From Angiostrongylus vasorum (lineage: Eukaryota > Nematoda > Chromadorea > Rhabditida > Metastrongylidae): DNA of 64,000 nucleotides. Location of the stretch: the NCBI GenBank assembly GCA_018806985.1, contig JADANN010000417.1:62001-126000 (forward strand), given 5' to 3'. The stretch's first letter is position 1. Each line of letters starts with the position of its first letter. Both the position numbers and the translations under genes were made by a program. Shown piece after piece: positions 19,658-63,945 of the stretch. The notes beneath the pieces are model-generated. The model ran no database searches. It was not told the origin of the DNA and worked only from the letters and a program-made list of their open reading frames with translations.

Positions 19658-22600
19658 ATGGATGAATGGATTTTGCTGGACGAAGTTGATGTCATTGCGC
19701 TATGGCCAAAAGAACAACAGAAGAACGTGGAGTCTTCAAAGTGGCAAGAGCGAAAGGAAGCCCTAGAGGTAGCTATCGATTTGTTTTTTGATCGTTATTA
19801 TCTTCTTCTTCAAATTAGCATCCCACATTTGCCATCCGTATAGCCTCTGATACCTTTTGCGATTCTACTGCTTGTCGTTGACTATTTCGTCTCTGTACCT
19901 CAAATGACGTTTGTTTTTACACTGACCACTCTCATCACCAGGAGTATTATTTCGTACACTCGTGGCGATTCAGGATTTTAGCAAGTCTGGTGCTTTTTTG
20001 TTGTTTGTTGCGGAGCCGTTGAGGGGATGAGAACATGGCAGAGTGTTAGTTGACACTACGATCTATCGCCCGCATGGTATAAAAGACATTATGGTGTTAG
20101 TCTAATTTTTGGACTTCTTTACGTTTGGAGTTTCGAAAGGTTTTTTTCTTGGAGACGAAATCTAAGTTTTCGAGTTTTTTTTTAAACATTCGCAGCTCAC
20201 GGAAGTCACTCATATGAGGGGATCTCAAGCCGGCTAGTCGCGAGGCTACGTGGGCCGTCGCCAGTTTGCGGATAGAGGGTTAGTCGCGGACCAAAAGCGA
20301 CCATATGTTTCCCTGAGAAGCAGGTGGATCCAAGGGATGAACCCCTGTTTCTGCTCCACCGATTTGGCACATACTTTCTGTATTTACGAGGCGTATTCAT
20401 GCATGCGTGTGTAGGTGCGTTCAAGTTTACGCGGATTGTATTCTACCAGTCAATTCGTCCAAAAGCTTGAAATCAAGTGTCAGGGAAGTATATGGGAGGC
20501 GGTTAGGAGTCGCCTCCAACAAATAAGCTCCATGTCCACTCTGGGAGAGCGTGGCAAGCTACCCGTGAGTATACCCAGCCCCCCCACGTTCAGAGCCCAG
20601 CAAGCTATACGTGGGTATCAAAATGCTAAACACAGAAAAAAAAACGGGCCTCATTTCCTCGACCGAAAGAGCCCCAGTTCAGCAGCGTTGGCTAGGACGA
20701 GTACGGAGAGGATTCTAAAATCTCAGGACCAATGGAAGCTGGCTGGATTGCAAAGAACTAAGGTGGCGATCTTTACCTACAATGCACGTACACTTGCATC
20801 CGAGTCCTCGATAGAAGACTCGATCATGCAAGCGAGAAGGATAAGGTACGACTTCATCGGCCTGGCCGAGGCGAGACGATGCCACCCATTCAACGCCGTC
20901 TATAACACCGGAGAAGAACTGTTCCTTGGAACATGCGACAGCAGAGGAGTCGGCGGCGTCGGCGTTCTCGTCGATTCTCGTCAACACGAGTTAGTCCGTG
21001 AAAATCTCGACTCGAACAACTCGAATTCACTCGAACAACTAACAACTCGAATCGGACGTTTACGATTAAAAAGATATGGATCAGTATCAGCTTTGACAAT
21101 CTTCGTCGTTTACGCGCAGATATCAAACTATGACGATGAAGAAGTCGACGCGTTCTATATGGACTTGGAGAAGTTCTACAGAACCCGCACCCTCAACGAA
21201 CGTGGAAGTCTCCCAATGGAGAGTACCATAGCGATATAGACAACATCATGGTAAACCGAAGGTTTTGCCTAGCCGATGTCGCTGTTGTCCCAAAATTCCA
21301 CGCGTGATCAGACCATCGCCTTTTTTTGTGCAAGATTCCATTTCTCGCAGAAAGGAGAATAAGACGCTAAATTCAAAAAACGAAGTCCCAGAACCACCAC
21401 AAACTGGGACTTATTCAATTCATTACTCGGCTGTTGGGAAGATGCCGTTGTCGATAACATCGACGAGGAATACGATCGGCTCGTTCAACATCTTCACGTT
21501 AGCGCTATGAAAGCTGAGAGTTCGAAACTCACCAAGAGACGTCTGCCTCCAGAAACACTCGAGCTGATACGCCAGCGTGGAATCTCACGAGCTGGCAGGT
21601 AACCACGAACTGACGTCCAAACTTGCAAAACAGTGCAGACAGGCGGTAAAAGAAGATCTTAAAGAGAGAAAAGCAGCTGTAATGGTCGAAGCTGCACAGG
21701 CTGGCAAAAGCATTCGCAAAGTCCACCGAAGCTTCGCCAATTACAAGACCAGGATGATTGCACTCCGACTCCCAGACGGAACAGTTACAACGTTTAGAAA
21801 GGCAATGGAGAAAATCACTCACGACTGCTACTCAGATCACTTAAGTAGCCACGTCCTCTTTCCCTCCTGTGAAATAATGGAGGATAGACATGTTGTATCA
21901 CCGGTTCTCCCTTCCGAAATCCGACATGCCATTTCGTCGGTGAAAAACTGAACAGATCCAGGTCAGGACAGGATAACTCGTGAACACCTGAAGAACCTTC
22001 CGCCAGTCCTCATAAACACATTGGCTCGGCTCTTCACACGTTACCTGTCAGAATGCAAGGTCCCTACTTAGTGGTAGACCAGGAAGAGCGTGTTATTGTT
22101 CAAGAAGGGTGACCTACACGATATCGGCAGTTATCGCCCAATCTATTTGCTGTCTGACGTCTACAAACCCTTCACTCGAGTCATCCTAAGCAGGATTGAC
22201 AGAACACCGGATGAAGAGCACCCATGTGAGCATGCAGAGTTTCGAAAAGCATTTGGTATGATGCACCACATCCACACGATAACAAGGCTCATTGAAGTAT
22301 CGCTAGAGTACAAAAAGACCGCTCTGTCTCATTTTCATCGATTTACAGAAGGGCTTTCATTCAGCTGAGATAGAAGTAGTCATTGGAAGCCCTTGATAGT
22401 CAAGGAGTCCCTATTCAGTACACTAAGATTCTTGGTGAGCTGTACAAAATTTTCACAACCAAGATATCGCCATTCTACAACGACGTTGAGATCGACGTCA
22501 AAAAGAGGGGTTAGGCAAGGCGATACCATCACGCCAAAATTATTTACCGTCTCGCTCCAGAACGTCATGCGAACATGGGATAATATAGGAGTGAAAATCG

Positions 22601-25600
22601 ATGGTCGACAGTTATATCATCTTCGTTTTGCTGATGACATCGTCCCAAACATTAGCCAAGTGGAGCGTATGCTTGCCGACTTTGATAAAGCCTGTGGAAA
22701 GATTGGTCTCCGACTAAATCTCACGAAAACGATGTTGATGAAGAACGGATTGATCACGCATTCATGCTCAACGGAACGAATATCTCCGAATGCTCCAGTT
22801 ATGTCTATCTAGGTCGCGAAATCAACATGATGAACGACCTAGTTCCAGAGCTGAGCAGAAGGAAACGAGCGGCTTGGGGGGCTTTCAAGAACATCGAGGA
22901 TATTGCGAAGTCAACAAATAATACCCAACTCCATGCTCACTTTTTCGACCCAACGGTACTTCCTTCGTTGACGTATGCGTCAGAAACCTGGTCGCTGCGT
23001 AAACAGGATGAAAAATCACTCAGTGGTATTGAATGCGCAGCCGAAAGGACGTTGCTAGGAGTATCCCGTATCACGCAAGTAAGGGAAGGGATCCGTAGCG
23101 CCGACCTGCGTCAACGATCAAAAATCAGTGATACCGTTCTGTACACCAAACAGTCGAAGATGAGCTGGGCCGGACACGTAATGCGTATGAACGATAGCCG
23201 GTGGACAAGGCTCATTAGTGACTGAATTCCTCCAGATGTCAAACGCACTGCAGGAAAACCACGGACCCGATGGTCAGAGTTCTTCACGATAAGCCTTGAA
23301 GAAAGATATGGTGCTCAACGAGTCCTTAAAGCGAGCAGAATCCACTGGGCTACTGCGCAAAAGGGAAAAGTGGAAGATTTACCGGCATCCGCTCGAGTCA
23401 TTCGACGATCAACGGGACTACAAGTGATACAGGTGAACAATCGCAGCAGCCGTGATCGGTAGTTACATTCGGGGCCAAAATCATATCCATCTAGAGGAGA
23501 TCATCATTGTTGAATCGCTACCTCTCCTTGAAACCATTGCCCATGAAAAACCAAGAAGATAGAGATTTATGTTCTTAACCAGATATCCGTTACGTTAAGG
23601 CTGAAAGTCTTGTACATTGTTGGGGCGAATTAATGAATTTACGTCTGAACTGCGTTAATTTGAATCTGGAAGGATCAGTTACTTTTCGGCGCGCATAGGT
23701 AGGAATGAGTTCATGTTCAAATTATACTAATTGGTTTGTTTCTTGAAGTGGGTTTTGCGATTCACCTTTGTTGGTAACGAGCTGTGAGCCCATCACTCGT
23801 AACTCCCAGTGGGTGTTATGATTCGTTGTCTTTTTTGGGCGCATATTGAGGTTGTATTCTCACTAACTTTGATTTTGGAACGATTCTTCATTTTGTAGCC
23901 GTTTAGTAGGTGTATGTCGTATTCTATCGTCATATGTTTACATTGAAATGCTATCGATACCATTTTTTGAAAAAATTTTTTTACCGCTATATTTCATTTG
24001 GAATTTCTAGTGTTTCGTAAGCCTTCCAACGATTTATTGCCTCATAATGGCTGGGAGGGGTTCTAGGATATCGGACTGCGATGTACAACGGGTGGATTCA
24101 TTCCCCAACAGCGTCTCCCGTGCTCAAAAAGAGTCCGGCATTTTCGTCAAGAAGCCCAGCTAAGAGTAAACCAATACCAAGGTCCACCACCGTCCTGGTA
24201 TCTAACTAGTCGCATAGTGGCAAATCTCCCTCTTATGCACAAAGGCGACGACTGCCTGTGGTGGTGACAACCTGGCGGAGACTTTGGCTAGGCTGACCTC
24301 GGGTCTCCAGCAAAACTCCAAAAGAATGGAAATTAGGCTGGGACCCACACAACTAGTGAAGAGGGCCATCCAAGTATGTGTAAGTGTTTCGTAAGAGTTT
24401 GTAAAGGAGAAGGCTAAATTCTTGTGTACCTTACGAATTGATCTGCATATCGCCTCTAATTGGTTATGGAGTTGAGTCATTCAATCGCTTGTGAATGATT
24501 GTTTTGTCGTTTTTTTTTTCCTGCCAGTTGGCCCTCGCGTTTTTAGCAGTTTTTCAGTCTTGTTGAAATAATTGGTTGTTGCATCCTGAATTTTTTCATC
24601 CTACAGGTGTTTTTTTTTTTTGAAATGTTGTTAAGTTGTTGCATCCTGAACTTTTTCATCCTACAGGTGTTTTTTTTTTGAAATGTTGTTAAAACTCCTC
24701 AGATTTACACAGAGAAGATTTTTTTTGTTGGATTTACTGGATAAACTCTATGGTATTCTAAACATATGGCCAAGTTCTATTCTTATCTTTAATATTTTCC
24801 ATTGGAGTTTTGTGAAGAGAACTGACAATTGTACGACAAAAAGTAAATCATTAAGACTTCATTTCAAGGTCCTTGCACAGCTTATCGAAAAGCATCCTCG
24901 ATTATCAACTGTTTCAATGACGATATATGGAGAAGTCGTAGATAATCTGAAGAAGATACTCGCTCACGATAGCAACATTAATGTTGTTACTGTCGCTCTA
25001 CGTGTGCTAGGGGGACTAGCTCGTGGACTTCGGAGCCGATTCTCGTGTTTCGTATCAATGGTGATTTCGTGTTGGCTCTATTGTTTTCCTTATTTATACA
25101 CGTGTTTTGCTTTGCACCGTAGGTAGCTTTAATGTGGTCACAGATATTCAACAAAGTGTAACAGAATCTTGAAGTTATGAATGGTAGCTTTGTCTGCCAC
25201 CTCATGGTATTGTTTCTATGTGTCTAGCTACGGTGTGCAAAACAATATTCATCGCTGGCATCGTTATCCAAATCGAGAGGAGGTTACACATCTCGATTCG
25301 GAATGCTAGCGTTTGTACCACTGGTTTTCCACTTATTCCAAAGGACCTGGGAATGTTTTTTGTAAGTCCTCGTGTTAGGAAGCGAAAAGCCTTTTTAATG
25401 GGAGCAAGACCTGCTTGAGTACATTTGCATGTTCTTATCTACGACATCGGGTGGTGAGGCAACCTGTGAGAGGCGACTAAGTTTCTAAATGCAACGTTAG
25501 CAATTGGGAGTGAACCAAAACGTTGCATACAGCACAACCATGGTGGGTGTTTTTTTTTCCACCTATGCTGTCATGAAAGTGCATTTCTGAAGAAATAAAA

Positions 25601-40700: not shown

Positions 40701-43700
40701 GAAGGATGTTAGCTTCTCTGCCACCAAGATTCATCAAGTGTGGAAGCGATTCCTGCTCTCAGTTAACTGACCCATTGAATATGATGTAAGGGGGCCGAAT
40801 CCAGTATGTACATACCCTACTACATCACATGTAGTCTCGTTAATCACCGAGTAAGCAGTTGCCACCTTTAGGCGCCACTCTCCCCCCATCGAACACTTGG
40901 TACATATTGTGGGCTCGTTATGCCGTTTTTTTTAAACTGGTTTTCTGAGTATGTAGTTACGAGTAAAGTGCCCTGACGAGATATCCATGTACTCTTCGCT
41001 AGGTTTCTCTGTGGAACTCTCGGACTTCTTTTCATCCTAGGAAACATCGCTTGGATATGAACTCGTTGTTGTTCACTCTTGCTTCAAATTCAAGAAGAAC
41101 CTCCAGTCATGATGTAGAGGCAAATAATTGTAAGAGAATTAGTAATACGCTATAAAAGTATAAAAGATGAAGCTCTCGGCGTTGATCATTCCCTGAGAGA
41201 CGCGCCGTGCAGTCGACTTCATTAAGCATCGTTGGAGGTAATTGAATGCATATCTGGCCTTTACAATGACTCGCGGTGACCTACCGATGTATCCAGCCAA
41301 TGTTGCTATCCTCCCAGACAAGTCTGTACCAATCTGCCCACCGCGAAGGGATGGAGGGCTTGGTGGGTCATGGGGGGCCGGATCTATTCCATGTGTGTGT
41401 TGCAAGGCCTCTCCGACCACTGCGCCACACGCGCCCTTAATGCGCTATAGCAATCAATAATTTCTGGGATGTGAAGACATTTTGTACCTTTGTGAGGAAA
41501 TGAGAGTCACCCCAATAATGTACCCTAATGCTTTTTTAAGTGTCAAACGCAGTGGTTAAGACGGTGTAAATTGTCGAATACAAGAACAGGAGAAACACAC
41601 CACTGTAAAAAGCTTCGTATTTTATGAATCAGTTACAGGACTCCAAAAATGGATCTGAATGAGGAATTCTTGTTACATAGCAATTCCCAAGACCGACTTT
41701 CTGTTAACCTCGGCATTGAGTGATAATTCGATGTTTTTCTTCATTAAGCAGACACGAGGTTGTTATTATAGAATTTATTAGGATACAACAGGTGACGTTT
41801 CGGCGGTTTCGCTTTCTTCAGAGCCTGGCAATGTCAAATCGAGATGCGATCTACTCAGCCAAACACTTTCATAACCCTAACAGATAAAACTTCACAAATA
41901 AATTTGCACTCGCATAAGAAACAGCTTCATTTAAACACCCACCGTTTATTCGTTGTAAGTATTTCAGTTAGTTGGTGGGTAGTAGCCGCACAGAGTAATA
42001 CATGGGCGAGGATTGTGCCTGTGCCAGGTCATTGGATCAGCCTGAGGTATGGGGTTAGGTCACGCCTGAAGACGAGACACTCCCTCATGCGGTTCATTTT
42101 TGAAATTTTGGAATTGATCCAAAACGCTTCAGGAGTTTTACGCGCTGATGTTTTCGATTCGTGCGTGCGGATAGTGTTCTCTTATGCGATTATGGGATAC
42201 TCCCACTTCAAAATCTTCTCCTTTTTGTTCCCGCATCCTATACGCGCCTAGTGGAGTGTTTTGTTTTAATTTAGATTTACCGACTAGGTGTTCTCTTATG
42301 CGGACGCAGAGCGGTCTACCCGTTTCGCCAACGTATTCGTCCCCGCACGCTTTACAAGAGATCAGATAGACTGTACCTGAACTCATGCAATCACCGTCTC
42401 TATCGTTAGGGCAAATTATGCAGTTTTTCGTTATACATAGGCGGTCATATAGGCGGTTGCAAACTAGGTGGTGTCTTAGAGTGTCCGGTGGTATTTCTAT
42501 CGCTCTTACGGATTTCTCTAGACCGGCACTTACTAAGCAACGTTTTATGGCTGCACTTATTTCGTTTGGAATAAAGGGTAAGAGGAACGGAGCCTTGTTT
42601 TCGCTAGAATTATCTAGAATTATCACTCTGAGGCGTGGTTTCTCCTCTGTGCCAATGCCGAGCAGCTACGGAGGTCGTAACTATTTGAAATGGCTATTTG
42701 GCGCGGCAGTTTTGAGGATTCTTCCCTCTGCTCTCCTCTCTACCCGTGCGCACGCTGGTGGCGGTTTGAAATATATTTCTTATAAGATAAGTGCCCTTTT
42801 AGGGTGTAAGGGATGAGAGGAGAGGCAATGAACCACTATATTCTTGCTGCTTGGCTTTCGATACCATTTTATGATGTAGCCGTTTTTCGGATAGGTTAAT
42901 TTGAACGTTTAGAAATGGAAGCCAGTTTTTCTTTCGGTTTCTCACGGGTGAACTTTATGTACTCCGACTGTTCGTCCAATAACTCAAAGTGTTTGTCCAT
43001 CTCCTGTTGTGTGGAGCAGATGACAAAACAATCATCTGTATACCTACAGTAGAGTAATGGCCTGAGATCGATTACTGGTGCTTCCACTTTAGACATAAAG
43101 GCAACGGCAAGGGTTGATGCCAATCGCTGTCCCATTGCCAACCCTCTAATTTGCGCGTAATATTTCTCGGACCATCTGAAGATCGAGCAGTTTAGGCAGA
43201 CCTTTAGGGAGGACCATAAGCTGCTGAATCGAAAAGCCATACGTGTTAACTGCTTCTTCGTGTTGCTCAAGAAGCTCGCGGATGGGTTGCATTGCGGAGT
43301 CGTTCGACACGTTAGTGTAAAGGGCGGTAACGTCGAACTACTCCATAACGTGCACGCTTTTGGCACGTGCGTTACGAGACGATCTAGGAACATTTGGGCG
43401 TTCGTGAGATGGGCTGGTATGTGCTTAAGCAACTGGTTGAGAATTAGATTTATAAACCAAGCAATTCTGTGCGTAGGCTCGTAATTCAAAGATGATCCGC
43501 AAGGAGTGTCTTGTCGTCACGCATGACCTGGCGCCATACCTCAGGCTGATTCAATGATCTGATACAGGCACAGTCCTCGCCCATGTATTACTCTGTGCGG
43601 CTGCTATCCGCCAACTAACTTAAATACTTACAACAAATAAACGGTAGTTGTTTAAATGAAGCCGTTTCTTATGCGAATGCAAACTTATTTGTTAAGTTTT

Positions 43701-45495
43701 ATCTGCTATGGTTGTGAAAGTGTTTGGCTGATCGCATCTCAATTTGACCTCTCCAGGCTCTGAAGAAGGCGATACCCCCCGAGACGTCAGCTATTGTGTC
43801 CTGGTAAATTCTATAATAACAACCTTGTGTCTGCTTATTCAAGAAAAACATCGAATTCTTGTTAGCTGGATTCGTTCCAAGCCGGTGCTTGGTGTCTTAG
43901 TTCTTCGAAGACATTGATTTTCCATGTTATGTGATTTTGCGCAACCTCATTTGCTGAGTTTACCACTGATATCATTTCATTTCGACTTGTAGCTGAAGCT
44001 GCTGCTTTAGTTCCCATCATTTCTTTCTCATTCTGTTGATAGAAATTAGCCAACACTTACTTGTTACTTGAATGGCCCATCCTCACTGGTTGTGCGGACC
44101 CCAGCATAATCTTCATTTTTCGAAGATTTGCTAGTTACGCCATTGTGGTTCCTTGGCATTCCGAGGTCAGCCTGGCCAAAGTCTGCCCTAGCTCTTCACC
44201 ACCACGGGCAGTCGTGGCGTTGTGGATCAGAGGCAGATTTGCCAACATGCGAGTTTGATACCAGGACGGTGGTAGATCCTGGCATTGGTTTACTCTTAGC
44301 TAGGCTTCCTGATGGAAACGCCGGACTACTCAGCCTAGGAGACCCTGCCAGGGGATGAATCTCCACTGTACATCCTAGTCCGACACCCAGTAACACCTCC
44401 CAGTCACGACGAGGCAGTAAACAGTAGTGAGGTGGAGTGGAACCTCTGAGTGCGGACGGCCGCAACAAAAGCCAACGTGCCATCAGGGAGCCACACAGCG
44501 CGAGCCAAGAGGCGACCGAAATTAGCCAATAAATATTCATAATTGAGGAAGGGAGAAGAAATTTGTTTAAACAAATTCTTACTTTATTCTCCATTGCTGA
44601 AATTTTCGGTTTATTTGGGCGAGTCATGGTCTCCCCTGTATATGTTAATTGTGGCTGAAAGGAGTTTTTTCATTATTCATAGGTAGCAGATCACATTGAT
44701 GAATATTGCGCAGTATTTGAAAAGTAAGTAAACACAAGTAAACACACATCTTTAAGCATGAGCACCGCTACATCGCGTTCAAATTCATTCACGTCCGGAT
44801 CGAAACGCAGCTGTTCAGCGCTCAGCTGCATAACGGACCCCGAGATCTGAATTTCAAGTCTCATTTGACTTTTTTGGTGAAGAAAACGAAACTGTAGATG
44901 CTTCGAGCAACCACATTTTTTTGCGCTTGCGATGGAGTAAAGAAGTGAGGCAACAATTTGTCACCTACCGAGCTATTTTCGACGAGTTTTGAAGCCGATT
45001 TCATGTTGTCATCACAATCTTTTAATCTTTCTAAAACCTGAAACGAAATCTTGGCGCTTTTTAATTTGTACATCAAAGAAAATTTAATGGAAGCGTTCAA
45101 TGTGGTTGTACAGACTAGTTGCTATGTGACCGATATGAGCATGACTACCGAGAACGAATTTCAAAATGCAATGGGTCACTGAAGCATGGTGACTCCTACA
45201 GTGACGACGAAAAATGTCATCGCATGACGAAGCGATGGCGAATTTAATTCACCTACCTCTTGGTTCTTTACCATAATACTATCAAAGTTCTTTACCATTT
45301 CATCGGACCAGAATATAAAGTCCTTCACTGGACGCCGTATGAAGAAAACTCGCAGGGCACTGGAAGCCAGCCAAACCAAGCTTAAGCGGTTCTTCGTGTG
45401 CTGACCGTTTGTAGCACAAGTGAATTCTTCTCTAGCTGGTAAGCTGGCGATTTTGTTCGCAAGATTCTTTAGACTCGCACCAGCAGCAGTTCTTG
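37758..45495 (-). CDS. Lys/Glu-rich protein with C-terminal DPQYETL modules, 5' incomplete
   Basis: Unrecognised. Eight minus-strand exons, all phase 0 at the joins: 45257-45495 (SLKNLANKIASLP...FIFWSDEMVKNFDSI), 44969-45037 (VLERLKDCDDNMKSASKL), 43946-44032 (NEKEMMGTKAAASATSRNEM), 38999-39031 (SGKQGKKKGPQ), 38801-38876 (EKAEKAQPKPEKPDNEA), 38479-38581, 37912-38001 (TLRGIGKDLFVDEKPEEK) and 37758-37832 (VQKADAKDPQYETLADV, DDIFKG, stop). The N-terminal exons look helical. The C-terminal part is charged and repeats KADAKDPQYE|TL followed by a D-[LI]-F. Exons at 38801 and 38479 each need one base fewer in a homopolymer (A6 and C6) to stay in frame. The donor at 38478-38477 is GC. The Penelope-like element and an RTE fragment sit in the 5 kb intron. 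The first exon is not found. Confidence 0.55.
39320..39980 (+). mobile_element. RTE 5' fragment in intron
   Basis: Matches the 5' region and endonuclease start of the RTE copy. GGTGTCGGCGTTCTCGTCAA near 39899 aligns with GGCGTCGGCGTTCTCGTCGA near 20953, and GATACTGGAGAAGAAATGTT with AACACCGGAGAAGAACTGTT. It is antisense to the host gene. Confidence 0.8.
40240..41155. other. Unassigned intronic sequence
   Basis: A short open frame at 40237-40437 and a stretch at 40500-40760 with TTCCTGGAATCTCC are present, but nothing I can place confidently. The latter may be a remote SINE-3-like copy. Confidence 0.3.
41160..41435 (-). repeat. SINE-1 copy
   Basis: Minus-oriented, well preserved. The minus-strand head reads GTGTGGCGCAGTGGTCGGAG. 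Confidence 0.85.
41785..41827 (-). ncRNA. Hammerhead ribozyme-like motif, left terminus
   Basis: On the minus strand CTGAAGA (complement of 41815-41821) is followed by a possible stem-loop and GAAACGTC (complement of 41794-41801). Helix I is eroded (ACC after the cleavage position instead of AGC). Confidence 0.5.
42126..42626 (-). CDS. GIY-YIG nuclease region of the Penelope-like element
   Basis: An open frame of about 160 codons. A Cys-rich linker (CITKNCIICPNDRDGDC, then VYLISCKAC) leads into the nuclease core: TVYLIS stands for the GIY box and EYVGETGRPLCVRIREHL for the YIG box with its conserved Arg. The frame ends NISA before a stop. Such nucleases nick target DNA during Penelope-like retrotransposition. 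No initiation codon is expected, as it is the C-terminal part of a larger frame. Confidence 0.85.
42896..43489 (-). CDS. Reverse transcriptase region of the Penelope-like element
   Basis: An open frame of 197 codons. GLAMGQRLASTLAVAFMSKV matches the Penelope RT block G-x-x-M-G-x-x-x-A-x-x-x-A, and LLYCRYTDDCFVIC carries the catalytic DD pair. The frame breaks at ISKRSN and the following TYPKNGYIIKWYRKP block continues in another frame, so a frameshift has occurred. The N-terminal RT part is absent or beyond recognition. Confidence 0.85.
   Translation of the reverse strand: MNYEPTHRIAWFINLILNQLLKHIPAHLTNAQMFLDRLVTHVPKACTLWSSSTLPPFTLTCRTTPQCNPSASFLSNTKKQLTRMAFRFSSLWSSLKVCLNCSIFRWSEKYYAQIRGLAMGQRLASTLAVAFMSKVEAPVIDLRPLLYCRYTDDCFVICSTQQEMDKHFELLDEQSEYIKFTREKPKEKLASISKRSN
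43754..43797 (+). ncRNA. Hammerhead ribozyme-like motif, right terminus
   Basis: GGCT, CTGAAGA (43760-43766), AGGC, then GAGACGTC (43781-43788) and AGCT. The core has GAGA in place of GAAA. Helix I (AGC with GCT) is kept. Confidence 0.45.
44057..44428 (-). repeat. HP400 repeat copy
   Basis: Minus-oriented copy about 25 bases beyond an exon of the Lys/Glu-rich gene. The hairpin at about 44259-44287 has one mismatch. Confidence 0.85.
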
Positions 45496-48473: not shown

Positions 48474-51400
48474 TTACTTCAATCTGGCTAATCCTCGAGC
48501 TCCTCGCATCACATGTTGCCCTAATTTGCCTTGTCTTAGTTTGTCAAGCATTTTTTTCACCAGATTTTCCAAGAAGTCCTGAAAATCACGGAGAATTTTA
48601 GCCGAGTCAATGAGTTACTCTGTTAATTACTATTATGTGAAGCACATTGCAATGCAACAGTTCTTCCGTTTTCATTTTTTCTTCCCAAAAAAGGCATTAG
48701 TTAAAAGAATTTCGCTAGTTGTTCCGCGCTACAGTTTCAGCAGTCTCTGCGAAGGATTCTTGCCTTAAATCCCATATGATTCATAGTTCAAGTAGAATAT
48801 GTTCTGAGTTTAGAACCTGTAGAATAGATGAACCCTTCCAAAGGTTTACCGCCTCATCGTGGCTGGGAGGTGATCCTGGGTGTCGGATTGCGATGTACAG
48901 CAGGGGATTCGTTCCCCCCCGGCAGAGTCTCCCAAGCTGAGAAGGAGTCCGGCGTTTCTATGAGGAAGTCTAGCTAAGAGCAAACCAATACCAGGATCCA
49001 CCACTGTCCTGGTATCAAAGTCGCATGGTGGCAAATCTCCCTCTGATCACGGGGGCTACGACTGCCTGTGGTGGTGCGATCTGGGGCAGACTTTGGCCAG
49101 GCTGACCTCGGGATTCAAGGGAACCACAATAGCTTAACCAGCAAATCTCCGAAAGGTGGTCGTTATGCTGGAGCCCGCACCACCATTGAGGACGGGCCGT
49201 TCAATTATCAAGTATCAAGAAAGAATAGATGAACATATAAGGTGCTTAAACAACCATTGATAGTTTTTTAATGATGCTGAGATATTTGCAAAACTCCGGA
49301 CCGCAGGTGTCTACGGTGGGGAACGAACGAGCTATTGTCCTTTCCGAGGAGTAGCGCGCTCACCACCACACCATGCGGGTCCTTCGTTTCGCCTATCTCT
49401 CAGCTCAATTGTGATTATAACTGCAGCCTCAGCTTAACTGGGTTCGTTGCCGATTCGGGGTCCCCAGATCAATCCCGCTGACAGGTGATTGCTGACGGCA
49501 CAGATCGATAAGAACTAGCTGAGAGACAGGCGAAACGAAGGACCCGCATGGTGTGGTGGTGAGCGCGCTACTCCCCCGGAAAGGACAATACCGCGTTCGT
49601 TCCCACCGTAGACACCTGCGGTCCGAGTTTTGCAAAGATCTCAGCATCATTGAAAGTTATATTTCGCAATACATACCCTGCCGCTAAAAAAGAGTAGGCA
49701 GTAAATAATAAGTCAAAACCATTGATAGTGTCTACTTTAGAAGACCTGCCAGATATTCATGCTGTCTAGTAGTTTTTTTTCAATCACCTACCACGTAGGG
49801 CCTCTTTGAAAGCTTCGAGCGCTTTCAACTTCATACAGTTATGTTTGGTTTGATTAAGCTGTGCTGTTTTGCTAATGATTGCTTGTTCCAATGCGATGTC
49901 CAGTGTTTCTTGGCGACAGCTGAAAATTTAAGAGTTTTCAGCTGCTAATATTTCATTATTAACGCAGAATTGGGAAGATAAATGCTGAAATAAGGCACTT
50001 TGAGTCCTTTGATTCTTCAGCTTTTTCATAAGTTCCCACTATTCACTGCATTTTTTCGGGATTCTGCTTTAGGTAATCACATTTAATGTACGAAAATATT
50101 TACTAACAGATTGGAGACACTATTTATACCAATTCATACAACAATGGTTAGTGTTCTGCTTATATAAACGAACACTTCCCATAAAAAACCCGAACCACAG
50201 AGCGATAGCTTTGAGCGATAATATTGATTCCGTGGAGTGGTTTGCTGTAGGCCAAATAGAGATTTTAAGAGTGCCAACATTAATGCCATTTTGACTGATT
50301 TCAGAGAAAGCTTCAAACAGGATTGTGGATGTCGCAATGGGTCCAGGAGCACACGTACTTCTGAGATACGGTAGCTAGCGAGAATAGCTTCCAAAGTACC
50401 TTTTTTTCTATAAGATAGTTGTTGGTTTGCGTTCTTTGGTGAAGGATAGCTAATGGTCTACCTTTTTTGAAACATAGCAGCTAATCGGTTACCATTCCTG
50501 GGTTGTGGTAACAAAGGGTTATTTTCTTTGTACTAAGGAGGGTAGTAGGCTACCTTTTGCAGAGTGTGATATCTCCTAGGTTACCTTCTGCAGAGTTTAA
50601 TGAAAACTTACGTGTCAAAGTTTGGACAGCATTGGCGAAGTTTCGTGCATTTCTTCTGAATAAGATTAGCATCACGAAAACAATCTGATGATCGCTTGTA
50701 GTCTTCGCTGAGTAGTCGTATAAACGCCGAATTGAATGCCAAATTCTCTTTAGCAGAGTACGGTAGACATACAGACATCGAGTACTGAAAGTCAAAAAAC
50801 CAGAACATGTTCATTTGCGTGCGTGTGCTTTGTTCACCTACAAATAATGTATTCTTGTTATCAAGACACATTCGCCATCCATTGTTCCTCTTTATGACCA
50901 ATTCATACAGATCCTCGTACAAAGGCTGCTCATCAGGATCACAGAGCTCCTCGGGCTACAAAAAAATAATTGAAAAGTTTTTTCTTACTAGAAGTGAGAA
51001 AAAAAGGACAGCGCATTCGGTGTTGAGTAAACCTCGAGCAATGTGCTATGCATCCGACTATTCATGACATCGTAGAGGTGATCAAATGCATATTTGACAA
51101 AGTAATGGCATATGGAGCCTATCGATGTAAAAGTTGGTGCTTTTACAATTCCGGGGAAGTTTGGTAGGAGTCATCAACCTTATGCGACCATAATCAGCTG
51201 TTCTAATCTTCCTCACTGGAAGGCACGTAGAAAAGCGGCTCTGAAGAAGGCGATACTGCCGAAACGTCAGCTACTGTTGTATTGTATTGTGTTTTTCTAT
51301 GGAAGTAAATATATGTTGTTTAACAACCTCGCGATTGCTGAACAAGAAAACGAAGTTTGATAGGAGTTTGCCGACCCTGATGAGATGGAGTGCTCCTTTT

Positions 51401-62579: not shown

Positions 62580-63740
62580 ACGAAACCCTCTGAATGGCGC
62601 ACGAAACAAAAAGTAGCAGAATGTTTTCGTGTTCACTTTTACTTAAGTGCTTTATAATGTTTCACTCACAAGAAGAAAGTTTTATACTTTGCTTCCAAAC
62701 CTTATCGTGTCTATCACCTACCGCTAAACATGCAAGAACTAGGGCAGGTATTAGCAAATTTTTCGTTCTTCAGCCGCTCAGTAGAAATGCTCAGCGGGCT
62801 TGGCTCGAGAAACACGAACAACAGTATAACTTGCGCAAGTACTTCTTGGCTTACGCAGTATCTCCGAAGAAATCGTTATAGGCTAGTCAGTAGAGCGCTC
62901 AAAACTAGACATGAAACTTACTTGCCGTGAAGGATAGAATTCACTTACACACTGACCCATATATAGTTAGACATTATTGTTTCAATTATTCGGAAAAAAG
63001 TCAATCTAATGCAGCAATGGTCAGCAGCTGGTCATCTCACTCCATTGTTGCGAGCACAAATCCGAGTTAATGGACAACCCATAAGCTCAGTTACTTCGGG
63101 ATATTTCCGGTCTCCTTCGATTCACTCCAACGTTCCCATTGTTCTCATATCGTCAAGTATTCTGGGAACATAATTCGATCATGCTATAATTTAAATCCCG
63201 ACATGCATTTCTCTAAATTGCAAATACAGGTCTATTCTCTAGTCAAAAAGCTACACTGTACGTCGCTAGTCTTAAAAACGGCTTCTGTACTGCTTCATCT
63301 TCTACTGAACTCCGCTTACAAGCAGTTCTGCTCGTGATTCGGTCGAAAAATATGGTCTCAACAACTCAGGATTAGTTCCTGTGTGCATTGTTCTTCTCTT
63401 TTTTACATGATTTCTCTTACTATCCATCCCTTATTTATATAGATCTTCTGATCCTAAACATCTTCATTACTTACTTTCCTTTCGAAGTAACCATTACATC
63501 GTAAATGAAACGGCGATTTTAGAAAAAATTTTTTTATCTACACAAAAGCTAAACGCTTATTCTGATTTATTACGGGACCACTTTCTGATCATTCCAACTT
63601 TAACAAGAACAATTGTTCCGATGATAGCGTTGATGATTGGAAGAGACTTTCCAGAATATTCGTAAAAAGTTTTCTAATGGGTTGGTATTTTGCACGTTAG
63701 GTTCTCCCAAATATTGTGTGGAATACACCGAATTGTAAAG
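62580..63740. other. Unassigned interval
   Basis: Lies upstream of the first recognised exon of the minus-strand gene. Further 5' exons or its promoter may be here or beyond the window. Nothing else is recognised. Confidence 0.35.
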
Positions 63741-63744
63741 ATAG

Positions 63745-63945
63745 ATGACTCAGAGTCATCAACCATATGCGACTATAATCACCTGCTCTAGTCTTCCTCA
63801 TTGGAGGCCACGTAAAAAAACGGCTCTGAAGAAGGCGATACTGTCGAAACGTCAGCTACTGTTGTATTGTATTGTAAAGACAGAGTTAAAAAATACGTCC
63901 AGTACGGTGAAATCCTTAGCTATTAAACATCAAAATGCTTCTTAA
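63745..63945 (+). mobile_element. Solo Penelope-like terminal repeat
   Basis: Second stand-alone copy, matching 51164-51300 closely, including AGTCATCAACCATATGCGAC and CAGCTACTGTTGTATTGTAT. Divergence between the two suggests separate insertions, not one duplication. Confidence 0.7.
63820..63862 (+). ncRNA. Candidate minimal hammerhead ribozyme
   Basis: CTGAAGA (63826-63832), stem II GGC with GTC (a G-U wobble where the 51.2 kb copy has G-C), GAAAC (63846-63850), GTC (63851-63853) and AGCT pairing with GGCT in helix I. The only stem II difference from the 51.2 kb copy keeps pairing. Confidence 0.6.

What the first reader, a model, noticed from the sequence alone, without database searches (positions are those of the whole stretch)
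51234..51276. Hammerhead ribozyme core in a repeat family, stem retained between copies
This copy and the one at 63820-63862 contain CUGAAGA, a 3-bp stem II, GAAAC and GUC in the correct order, and flanks that pair as helix I. Stem II is GGC/GCC here and GGC/GUC there, so the single difference keeps pairing. Hammerheads with minimal stem III are known from Penelope-like element termini in other animals. A conserved set in a nematode, including copies with no protein-coding part, would be worth reporting. The extra A before stem II is a caveat.
Basis: partly seen in the sequence, partly recalled or inferred. Interest (0 to 1): 0.85.

Follow-up and report, generated by a model that had tools for sequence, protein, structure and literature searches.

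The report
Spliced Penelope transposon copy with hammerhead
The motif is a real minimal hammerhead-ribozyme sequence, but it belongs to Penelope-like jumping genes that are already known to carry such ribozymes; the less expected part is that this 182-base copy looks as if it was made from a spliced RNA of such an element.

Summary
Both copies carry CUGAAGA, a 3-4 bp stem II, GAAAC and GUC in order, with a short helix I. Genome-wide (279.9 Mb) the exact core occurs 8,587 times against 16 for the reversed pattern. It belongs to Penelope-like elements (PLEs). A broken PLE copy lies in this window (RT 42896-43516, GIY-YIG 42138-42665, minus strand), and 16 of 20 loci picked by RT similarity, the window's own among them, have the motif 0.7-1.1 kb downstream on the same strand. 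Minimal type I hammerheads without helix III are published for PLEs, so this is a new member of a known kind. Cleavage was not tested, no Rfam hammerhead model matches, and the "stem retained" argument carries little weight. New here: the flagged repeat (51171-51352) is one retro-insertion with a 14-bp target duplication. It equals exon 1 joined to the hammerhead exon, without a 104-120 bp GT-AG intron just upstream of the core, and stops 54 nt into the ORF, near where PLE reverse transcription starts internally. So sense, spliced PLE RNA probably served as template.

The parts
51157..51170 (.). left target-site duplication AAGTTTGGTAGGAG
   Evidence: 13 of 14 identical to 51353-51366; 0 of 200 shuffles as good
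51171..51237 (+). exon 1 of a PLE 5' UTR (TCATCAACC...AAAAGCG); intron missing after 51237
   Evidence: alignment with intron-containing copies L012, L019, L031, L080, L085
51238..51298 (+). exon 2: GCT, hammerhead core and rest of the 5' UTR
51237..51240 (+). hammerhead helix I, 5' strand GGCU, spanning the splice junction
   Evidence: helix I pairs 1-4 formed in 83-90 of 94 copies
51241..51247 (+). catalytic core CUGAAGA (C3-A9)
51248..51248 (+). extra unpaired A before stem II
   Evidence: A in 88 of 94 copies
51249..51260 (+). stem-loop II GGCG-AUAC-UGCC (3 bp plus G.U)
51261..51268 (+). GAAA, rudimentary helix III (AC/GU, no loop) and GUC; predicted cleavage between 51268 and 51269
   Evidence: inference from the hammerhead consensus
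51269..51272 (+). hammerhead helix I, 3' strand AGCU
51299..51352 (+). first 18 codons of the inferred PLE ORF (MEVNICCLTTSRLLNKKT), ending at the insertion's 3' end
51353..51366 (.). right target-site duplication AAGTTTGATAGGAG
63756..63875 (+). second spliced copy (exon 1 - hammerhead - part of the 5' UTR); core 63826-63853
41725..43857 (-). Penelope-like element copy with inverted terminal arms 41725-42083 and 43503-43857
   Evidence: inverted repeats 86-89% complementary
42896..43516 (-). PLE reverse transcriptase fragment (206 aa open frame)
   Evidence: PF00078 E 9.7e-8
42138..42665 (-). PLE GIY-YIG endonuclease fragment (175 aa open frame)
   Evidence: PF01541 E 0.0023, below its cut-off; 22 homologues, several named GIY-YIG
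41794..41821 (-). hammerhead core downstream of the endonuclease; stem II pair 1 is A.C
43760..43787 (+). decayed hammerhead core (GAGAC) in the inverted arm

Best explanation
The motif is the minimal type I hammerhead of a Penelope-like retroelement family, sitting in the pseudo-LTR / 5' UTR three nucleotides downstream of a 3' splice site. Transcripts run exon 1 - intron - hammerhead exon - ORF (RT, GIY-YIG endonuclease). The flagged 182-bp repeat is one insertion made from a spliced sense RNA: the intron was removed, reverse transcription started inside the first ~55-105 nt of the ORF, and the cDNA was copied to the RNA's 5' end and inserted with a target duplication. The ribozyme is expected to cut after GUC (51268/51269), most likely only as a dimer or with protein help, because helix III is a loop-less ACGU that a second copy could pair with. 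Shown by sequence: anatomy, association with PLE reverse transcriptases in 16 of 20 loci, intron loss, end points, target duplication. Inferred: the template pathway and the exact ORF start. Not shown: cleavage and its role.
For: 8,587 exact cores against 16 reversed-pattern controls. 16 of 20 RT-picked loci have a core downstream on the same strand (15 exact, one with CATC; the window's own copy is one of the 16). L128 has two 241-bp direct pLTRs, 98% identical, with an exact core in the first and a core with one substitution in the second. This window's repeat unit aligns with those pLTRs only over the ~37-nt hammerhead. Introns of 104-120 bp (donors GTGAGT, GTGGGT, GTGAAT or GTTAGT; acceptors ending in CCAG) with a matching donor in 24 of 72 intron-type rows; 11 of 94 rows are spliced-like, in at least three lineages. 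Last ORF residues of copies cluster at 13-17 and about 23-38, like the PLE internal start sites and optional tail (PMC11167929; PMC3846280). Target duplication. Conserved minimal hammerheads in PLEs: PMC6155905 and PMC7761336.
Against: No Rfam hammerhead match. Monomer and computed dimer prefer other folds. Covariation is thin. The extra A departs from the textbook core. 4 of 20 RT loci lack a downstream core. Direct pLTRs were seen in 1 of 3 loci examined by self-comparison. 48 of 72 intron-type rows showed no donor by my pattern. In the one PLE tested in vitro in the literature read, the ribozyme needed protein and its mutants did not affect insertion (PMC11167929).
Confidence: 0.8

Rival explanations
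1. The motif is a conserved cis-element of PLEs (splice acceptor, translation-start context or RT/endonuclease binding site) whose hammerhead-like letters are a relic without catalysis.
For: The conserved TTCCAG|GCT 5' of the core is a splice acceptor. No Rfam match. Monomer and computed dimer folds differ. In PMC11167929 ribozyme mutants did not affect insertion.
Against: Core, helix I, stem II and GUC occur together in RT-picked loci of at least two lineages, while flanks of different lineages no longer align; copies with U or C at position 7 mostly replace a stem II G-C by A-U on both sides (19 of 24 among those with A on the 5' side). PLE hammerhead cleavage is reported for PAc (PMC11167929) and in the title of Lunse et al. 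2017 (reference list).
Confidence: 0.15
2. The 182-bp copies are animal retrozymes: small repeats that spread through hammerhead-made circular RNAs.
For: Size about 182-230 bp, a hammerhead, almost no coding part, coexistence with PLEs; retrozyme sizes and coexistence reported in PMC7229834 (passages).
Against: Copies are dispersed or head-to-head inverted (23 of the 40 best-scoring places have an abutting opposite-strand partner), not tandem. Their ends coincide with an exon start and a PLE reverse-transcription start, not with the cleavage site.
Confidence: 0.05
3. Short copies are solo pLTRs left by recombination between the two pLTRs of full-length elements, or copies of one intron-less master locus, so that splicing was not part of each event.
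For: Solo pLTRs are known (PMC3846280). The 39 best-scoring places outside the window are 94-98% identical to the window copy, as if from few masters.
Against: Recombination does not remove an intron at GT-AG borders. Inverted partners that also contain exon 1 joined to the hammerhead (places at C455, C32, C213) need a short template. A spliced master remains possible and would still require splicing at least once in each of at least three lineages.
Confidence: 0.25

Closest known systems
Minimal type I hammerheads of Penelope-like elements (Cervera and de la Pena 2014; Lunse et al. 2017, both seen only as citations; summarised in PMC7761336 and PMC6155905, passages read)
   Same: Hammerhead core without helix III, in PLE pseudo-LTRs, thousands of dispersed copies, expected to act as dimers.
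   Different: Host is a nematode by its protein relatives; an extra A before stem II in nearly all copies sampled (whether published ones have it could not be checked); adjoins a 3' splice site here.
PAc, Poseidon of Anolis carolinensis (PMC11167929, passages and first part of the main-text section read)
   Same: RT plus GIY-YIG ORF, hammerhead near the ORF start, reverse transcription starting internally about 111-118 bp into the ORF, optional tail.
   Different: Here the inferred ORF start lies 30 nt after the cut site, not at stem II; spliced short copies are not mentioned in the passages read.
Penelope families of Adineta vaga (PMC3846280, passages read)
   Same: Direct and inverted pLTRs, optional 31-bp tail, pLTR reaching into the first 12-22 codons, solo pLTRs, introns retained.
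   Different: That paper discusses an antisense template as compatible with intron retention; here precisely spliced copies point to a sense template for at least the short copies.
Animal non-LTR retrozymes (PMC7229834, passages read)
   Same: Short, non-coding, hammerhead-bearing, coexist with PLEs.
   Different: Tandem repeats with canonical hammerheads and circular RNAs there; dispersed or inverted copies with minimal hammerheads here.

Membership tests
Minimal type I hammerhead ribozyme | Core CUGANGA ... GAAA ... UH in order | tested here: met
Minimal type I hammerhead ribozyme | Helices I and II formed, helix III reduced | tested here: met
   by complementarity: helix I 83-90 of 94 per pair (1-4), stem II 80-84 of 91 with one unpaired nucleotide; GAAAC directly followed by GUC; not the minimum free energy fold
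Minimal type I hammerhead ribozyme | Covariation in the stems | tested here: inconclusive
   A with T partner in 31 of 100 listed places (of 315) against G with T in 8 of 79; 19 of the 31 have T or C at position 7
Minimal type I hammerhead ribozyme | Self-cleavage after GUC | not testable with these tools
   needs in vitro transcription
Rfam hammerhead families | Score above the gathering cut-off | tested here: not met
   0 matches in the window; none at E<=10 in three window pieces or 18 loci
Penelope-like element (host element) | RT plus GIY-YIG endonuclease in one element | tested here: met
   the frames in the window copy are broken
Penelope-like element (host element) | Direct and inverted pseudo-LTRs, optional tail | tested here: met
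   direct pair in L128, 1 of 3 loci; inverted arms in the window and 23 of 40 places; tail in 30 of 94 copies
Penelope-like element (host element) | Target-site duplication | tested here: met
   14 bp at the flagged copy; at most 2 of 200 shuffles as good in 4 of 12 copies scanned (window, L004, L002, L006), weaker or none in the other 8
Animal retrozyme | Tandem repeats with hammerheads | tested here: not met
   dispersed or inverted copies in the loci seen; a genome-wide close-tandem search did not complete
Animal retrozyme | Circular RNA intermediates | not testable with these tools
   no RNA data

The most novel reading that the evidence does not exclude
PLE mobilisation in this nematode uses sense mRNA that is cis-spliced and spliced-leader trans-spliced. 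The ribozyme core abuts the 3' splice site, so that splicing and self-cleavage act on the same RNA region, and internal reverse-transcription starts at the ORF give rise to a large population of intron-less 5'-UTR mini-copies. The constant GAG in front of TCATC would then be the end of the spliced leader.
Probability: 0.2. Interest if true: 0.6.

Novelty: new member of a known kind. Interest (0 to 1): 0.35.

Why it matters
The hammerhead itself extends a known association (PLE plus minimal hammerhead) to a nematode genome that holds 8,587 exact cores. The by-product may matter more. Whether PLEs copy a sense or an antisense RNA is left open in PMC3846280, where intron retention is discussed as compatible with an antisense template. 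Precisely spliced copies that end near the known internal start sites give genomic evidence for a sense, spliced template and make the question testable with junction reads and in vitro insertion assays.

Tried and rejected
A 'leader versus repeat' model, in which the part upstream of the hammerhead was a 5' leader unique to one end, was dropped when alignment showed it to be exon 1 of the same RNA with the intron removed. L126 and L127 were first read as PLEs with this repeat as their 5' pLTR; the sequence after the repeat did not support that, so they are not used for it. L128 was first noted as having a hammerhead in both pLTRs; reading it showed one substitution in the second core.

Helix III variation as a test of dimer pairing gave nothing: ACGU dominates the listed places, and 7 of the 12 departures I count are CpG transitions. 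Stem II base U at pair 2 has A as partner in only 2 of 30.

The spliced-leader idea for the constant GAG: 26 of 44 junctions read have GAG before TCATC, against CAG in 6 of 6 intron-containing rows of the alignment. The 44 include L160 and L161, which were fetched because they match TTTGAG, and two rows with the same flank (L126, L134). The longest match to the nematode SL1 end (recalled sequence) is 7 nt. At the flagged copy the GAG also lies inside the target duplication. Left unresolved.

Genome-wide counts of spliced against intron-type copies, a genome search with the Rfam hammerhead model and a close-tandem pattern search were requested but did not complete. Papers of Cervera 2014, Lunse 2017 and Craig 2021 are not held.

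Full report
What is there. The flagged sequence reads GGCU-CUGAAGA-A-GGCG-AUAC-UGCC-GAAAC-GUC-AGCU, and the copy at 63826 differs in stem II by one C-to-U. The strict core pattern occurs three times in the window, at 51241(+), 63826(+) and 41821(-); with two mismatches there are four hits against 0.32 expected. Another, decayed copy lies at about 43760(+). In the whole genome (279,923,027 bases in 468 contigs) the pattern CTGANGA-N(8-22)-GAAACGTCA has 4,283 + 4,304 exact matches, the reversed pattern 10 + 6. Repeat copy number inflates the first figure, so it shows abundance and not selection.

Structure in a sample. All of the first 100 places listed were taken with flanks (30 loci delivered and 67 regions fetched; neighbouring places share loci). 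Rows identical over the core and 40 bases on either side were counted once, leaving 94. Helix I pairs 1-4 can form in 90, 87, 83 and 86 of 94; further pairs are not conserved. Stem II pairs 1-4 can form in 84, 83, 80 and 81 of 91 rows (three rows with a 12-nt stretch set aside) if one nucleotide is left unpaired after CUGANGA. Without it only one of four positions pairs. The first nucleotide after CUGANGA is A in 88 of 94; of the three 12-nt rows one, L045, lacks the extra nucleotide.

How good is the evidence for the stem? In single copies it is poor: over stem II pairs 1-3, single transitions that keep the pair number 22 and those that break it 14, which neutral decay can give. Copies with A at the second stem II position have U as partner in 31 of the 100 places listed (of 315), against 8 of 79 for copies with G in the sample. 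Of those 31, 19 have U or C at position 7 (19 of 24 such places); outside that group the figure is 12 of 76. This looks like one compensatory replacement in one lineage, although the lineage is defined here only by position 7 and not by a tree. For U at that position the partner is A in 2 of 30. Helix III letters vary little. The minimum free energy fold is not the hammerhead in any of four copies tried, nor is the computed two-molecule fold a double hammerhead. No Rfam hammerhead family matches the window, three window pieces or 18 loci. Core conservation in this sample cannot be used as evidence, since the sample was drawn by the core.

Non-circular evidence. A broken PLE copy lies in the window: an RT fragment (PF00078), a GIY-YIG fragment (PF01541, E 0.0023, below its cut-off) whose homologues include nematode proteins named GIY-YIG, inverted arms, an exact core in one arm and a decayed one in the other. 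Searching the genome with the RT fragment gave 150 scored matches of 9,396 candidates. Of the 20 loci fetched (the window's own copy is one), 16 have a hammerhead core on the same strand 0.7-1.1 kb downstream of the RT match (15 exact, one with CATC); L107, L113, L115 and L118 do not. Locus L128 has pLTR - ORF - pLTR with 241-bp repeats 98% identical; the first holds an exact core, the second a core with one substitution. The repeat unit of this window aligns with those pLTRs only over about 37 nt, the hammerhead. L128 is 1 of 3 loci examined in that way.

The 182-bp repeat is a spliced copy. Against intron-type copies (L012, L019, L031, L080, L085) the flagged repeat and L003, L006, L038 lack exactly the segment that runs from a donor (GTGAGT in four, GTGAGG in L085) to CTTCCAG or CCTCCAG, just before GCTCTGAAG. 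In the 94-row sample, sorted by simple patterns, 11 rows are spliced-like, 72 end like the intron and 11 fit neither. 24 of the 72 have a matching donor 104-120 bp upstream; the other 48 do not by that pattern. Spliced and intron forms both occur in at least three lineages, judged by their downstream sequence. The two nucleotides in front of the three that precede the core are AG in 68 and CG in 14 of 94. The hammerhead core starts three nucleotides into the exon, and because exon 1 ends in G the helix I strand GGCU is the same before and after splicing.

Ends. The flagged insertion is 51171-51352 with a 14-bp duplication, 13 of 14 identical. The ATG at 51299 opens MEVNICCLTTSRLLNKKT and is taken here as the ORF start. 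In L038 the two common end points of this family lie 59 and 102 nt from that ATG. Compared with ORF starts of L128, L119 and L024, 39 of 83 other rows and 9 of 11 spliced rows show a match. In the 39, the last residue matched is 13-17 in 11, 23-35 in 22, 37 in one and beyond 37 in five; in the 9 spliced rows it is 14-16 in two and 24-38 in seven. The tail motif is found in 30 of 94 rows, 77-78 or 101-107 nt after the core. This agrees with the two internal reverse-transcription starts and optional tail in PMC11167929 (passages and the first part of the main-text section) and with the pLTR reaching 12-22 codons into the ORF in PMC3846280 (passages).

Mechanism, marked. Shown by sequence: PLE association, intron loss, end points, target duplication, inverted partners (23 of the 40 places scored, out of 1,923 candidates). 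Inferred: a sense, spliced RNA was the template; reverse transcription began inside the ORF start of that RNA and ran to its 5' end. Inferred from published PLE work: the hammerhead cuts after GUC as a dimer or with protein help; in PAc it needed protein and its mutation did not affect insertion. Its biological role is reported as unknown, and nothing here decides it.

Known or new. PMC6155905 (passages) states that all PLE sequences then available carry hammerhead motifs, usually without helix III. PMC7761336 (passages) says that PLEs show conserved minimal type I motifs and cites the dimer work. The literature search joining hammerhead ribozyme, Penelope and nematode returned 4 papers, none of which by title and start of abstract is about nematode PLE hammerheads; the two key papers are not held, so priority in nematodes cannot be claimed. 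Introns in PLEs are known (title of Arkhipova 2003 in the reference lists). I saw no paper on spliced short PLE copies in the listings (the last shows 15 of 30) or in the passages read; that is not proof of absence. The verdict is a new member of a known kind, with a useful side observation.

Changes after checking: the second core of L128 is not exact, the count of copies without the extra nucleotide fell from three to one, and the computed dimer fold is now reported as not supporting a double hammerhead; confidence was lowered from 0.82 to 0.80 for the last.

Noticed in passing
51168-51170 and L002-L008, L129-L161: Spliced copies mostly begin with GAG before TCATC (26 of 44 junctions) where intron-type copies have CAG; GAG also appears between an inverted partner and the copy. 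Possible spliced-leader remnant or master-copy start; unresolved.
   Followed up: partly
genome-wide; L003, L007, L008, L160: Head-to-head inverted partial copies abut 23 of the 40 places scored, as described for rotifer Penelope elements.
   Followed up: partly
L071, L094 and places listed: Copies with CUGAUGA or CUGACGA and stem II GACG/CGUC, closer to the textbook core but still with the extra A.
   Followed up: partly
window 20415-23225: Fragments of another retroelement, RT domain PF00078 at 22369-22812.
   Followed up: no
places listed: Of 12 departures from ACGU that I count in the list, 7 are C-to-T or G-to-A at the CpG, which may point to raised CpG decay in this genome.
   Followed up: no
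63730-63760: The 63.8-kb copy has a 10-nt TGACTCAGAG stretch before TCATC, containing a tiny inverted piece of its own start, and by eye a possible duplication ATTGTAAAGAYAGA on both sides (flanks printed).
   Followed up: partly
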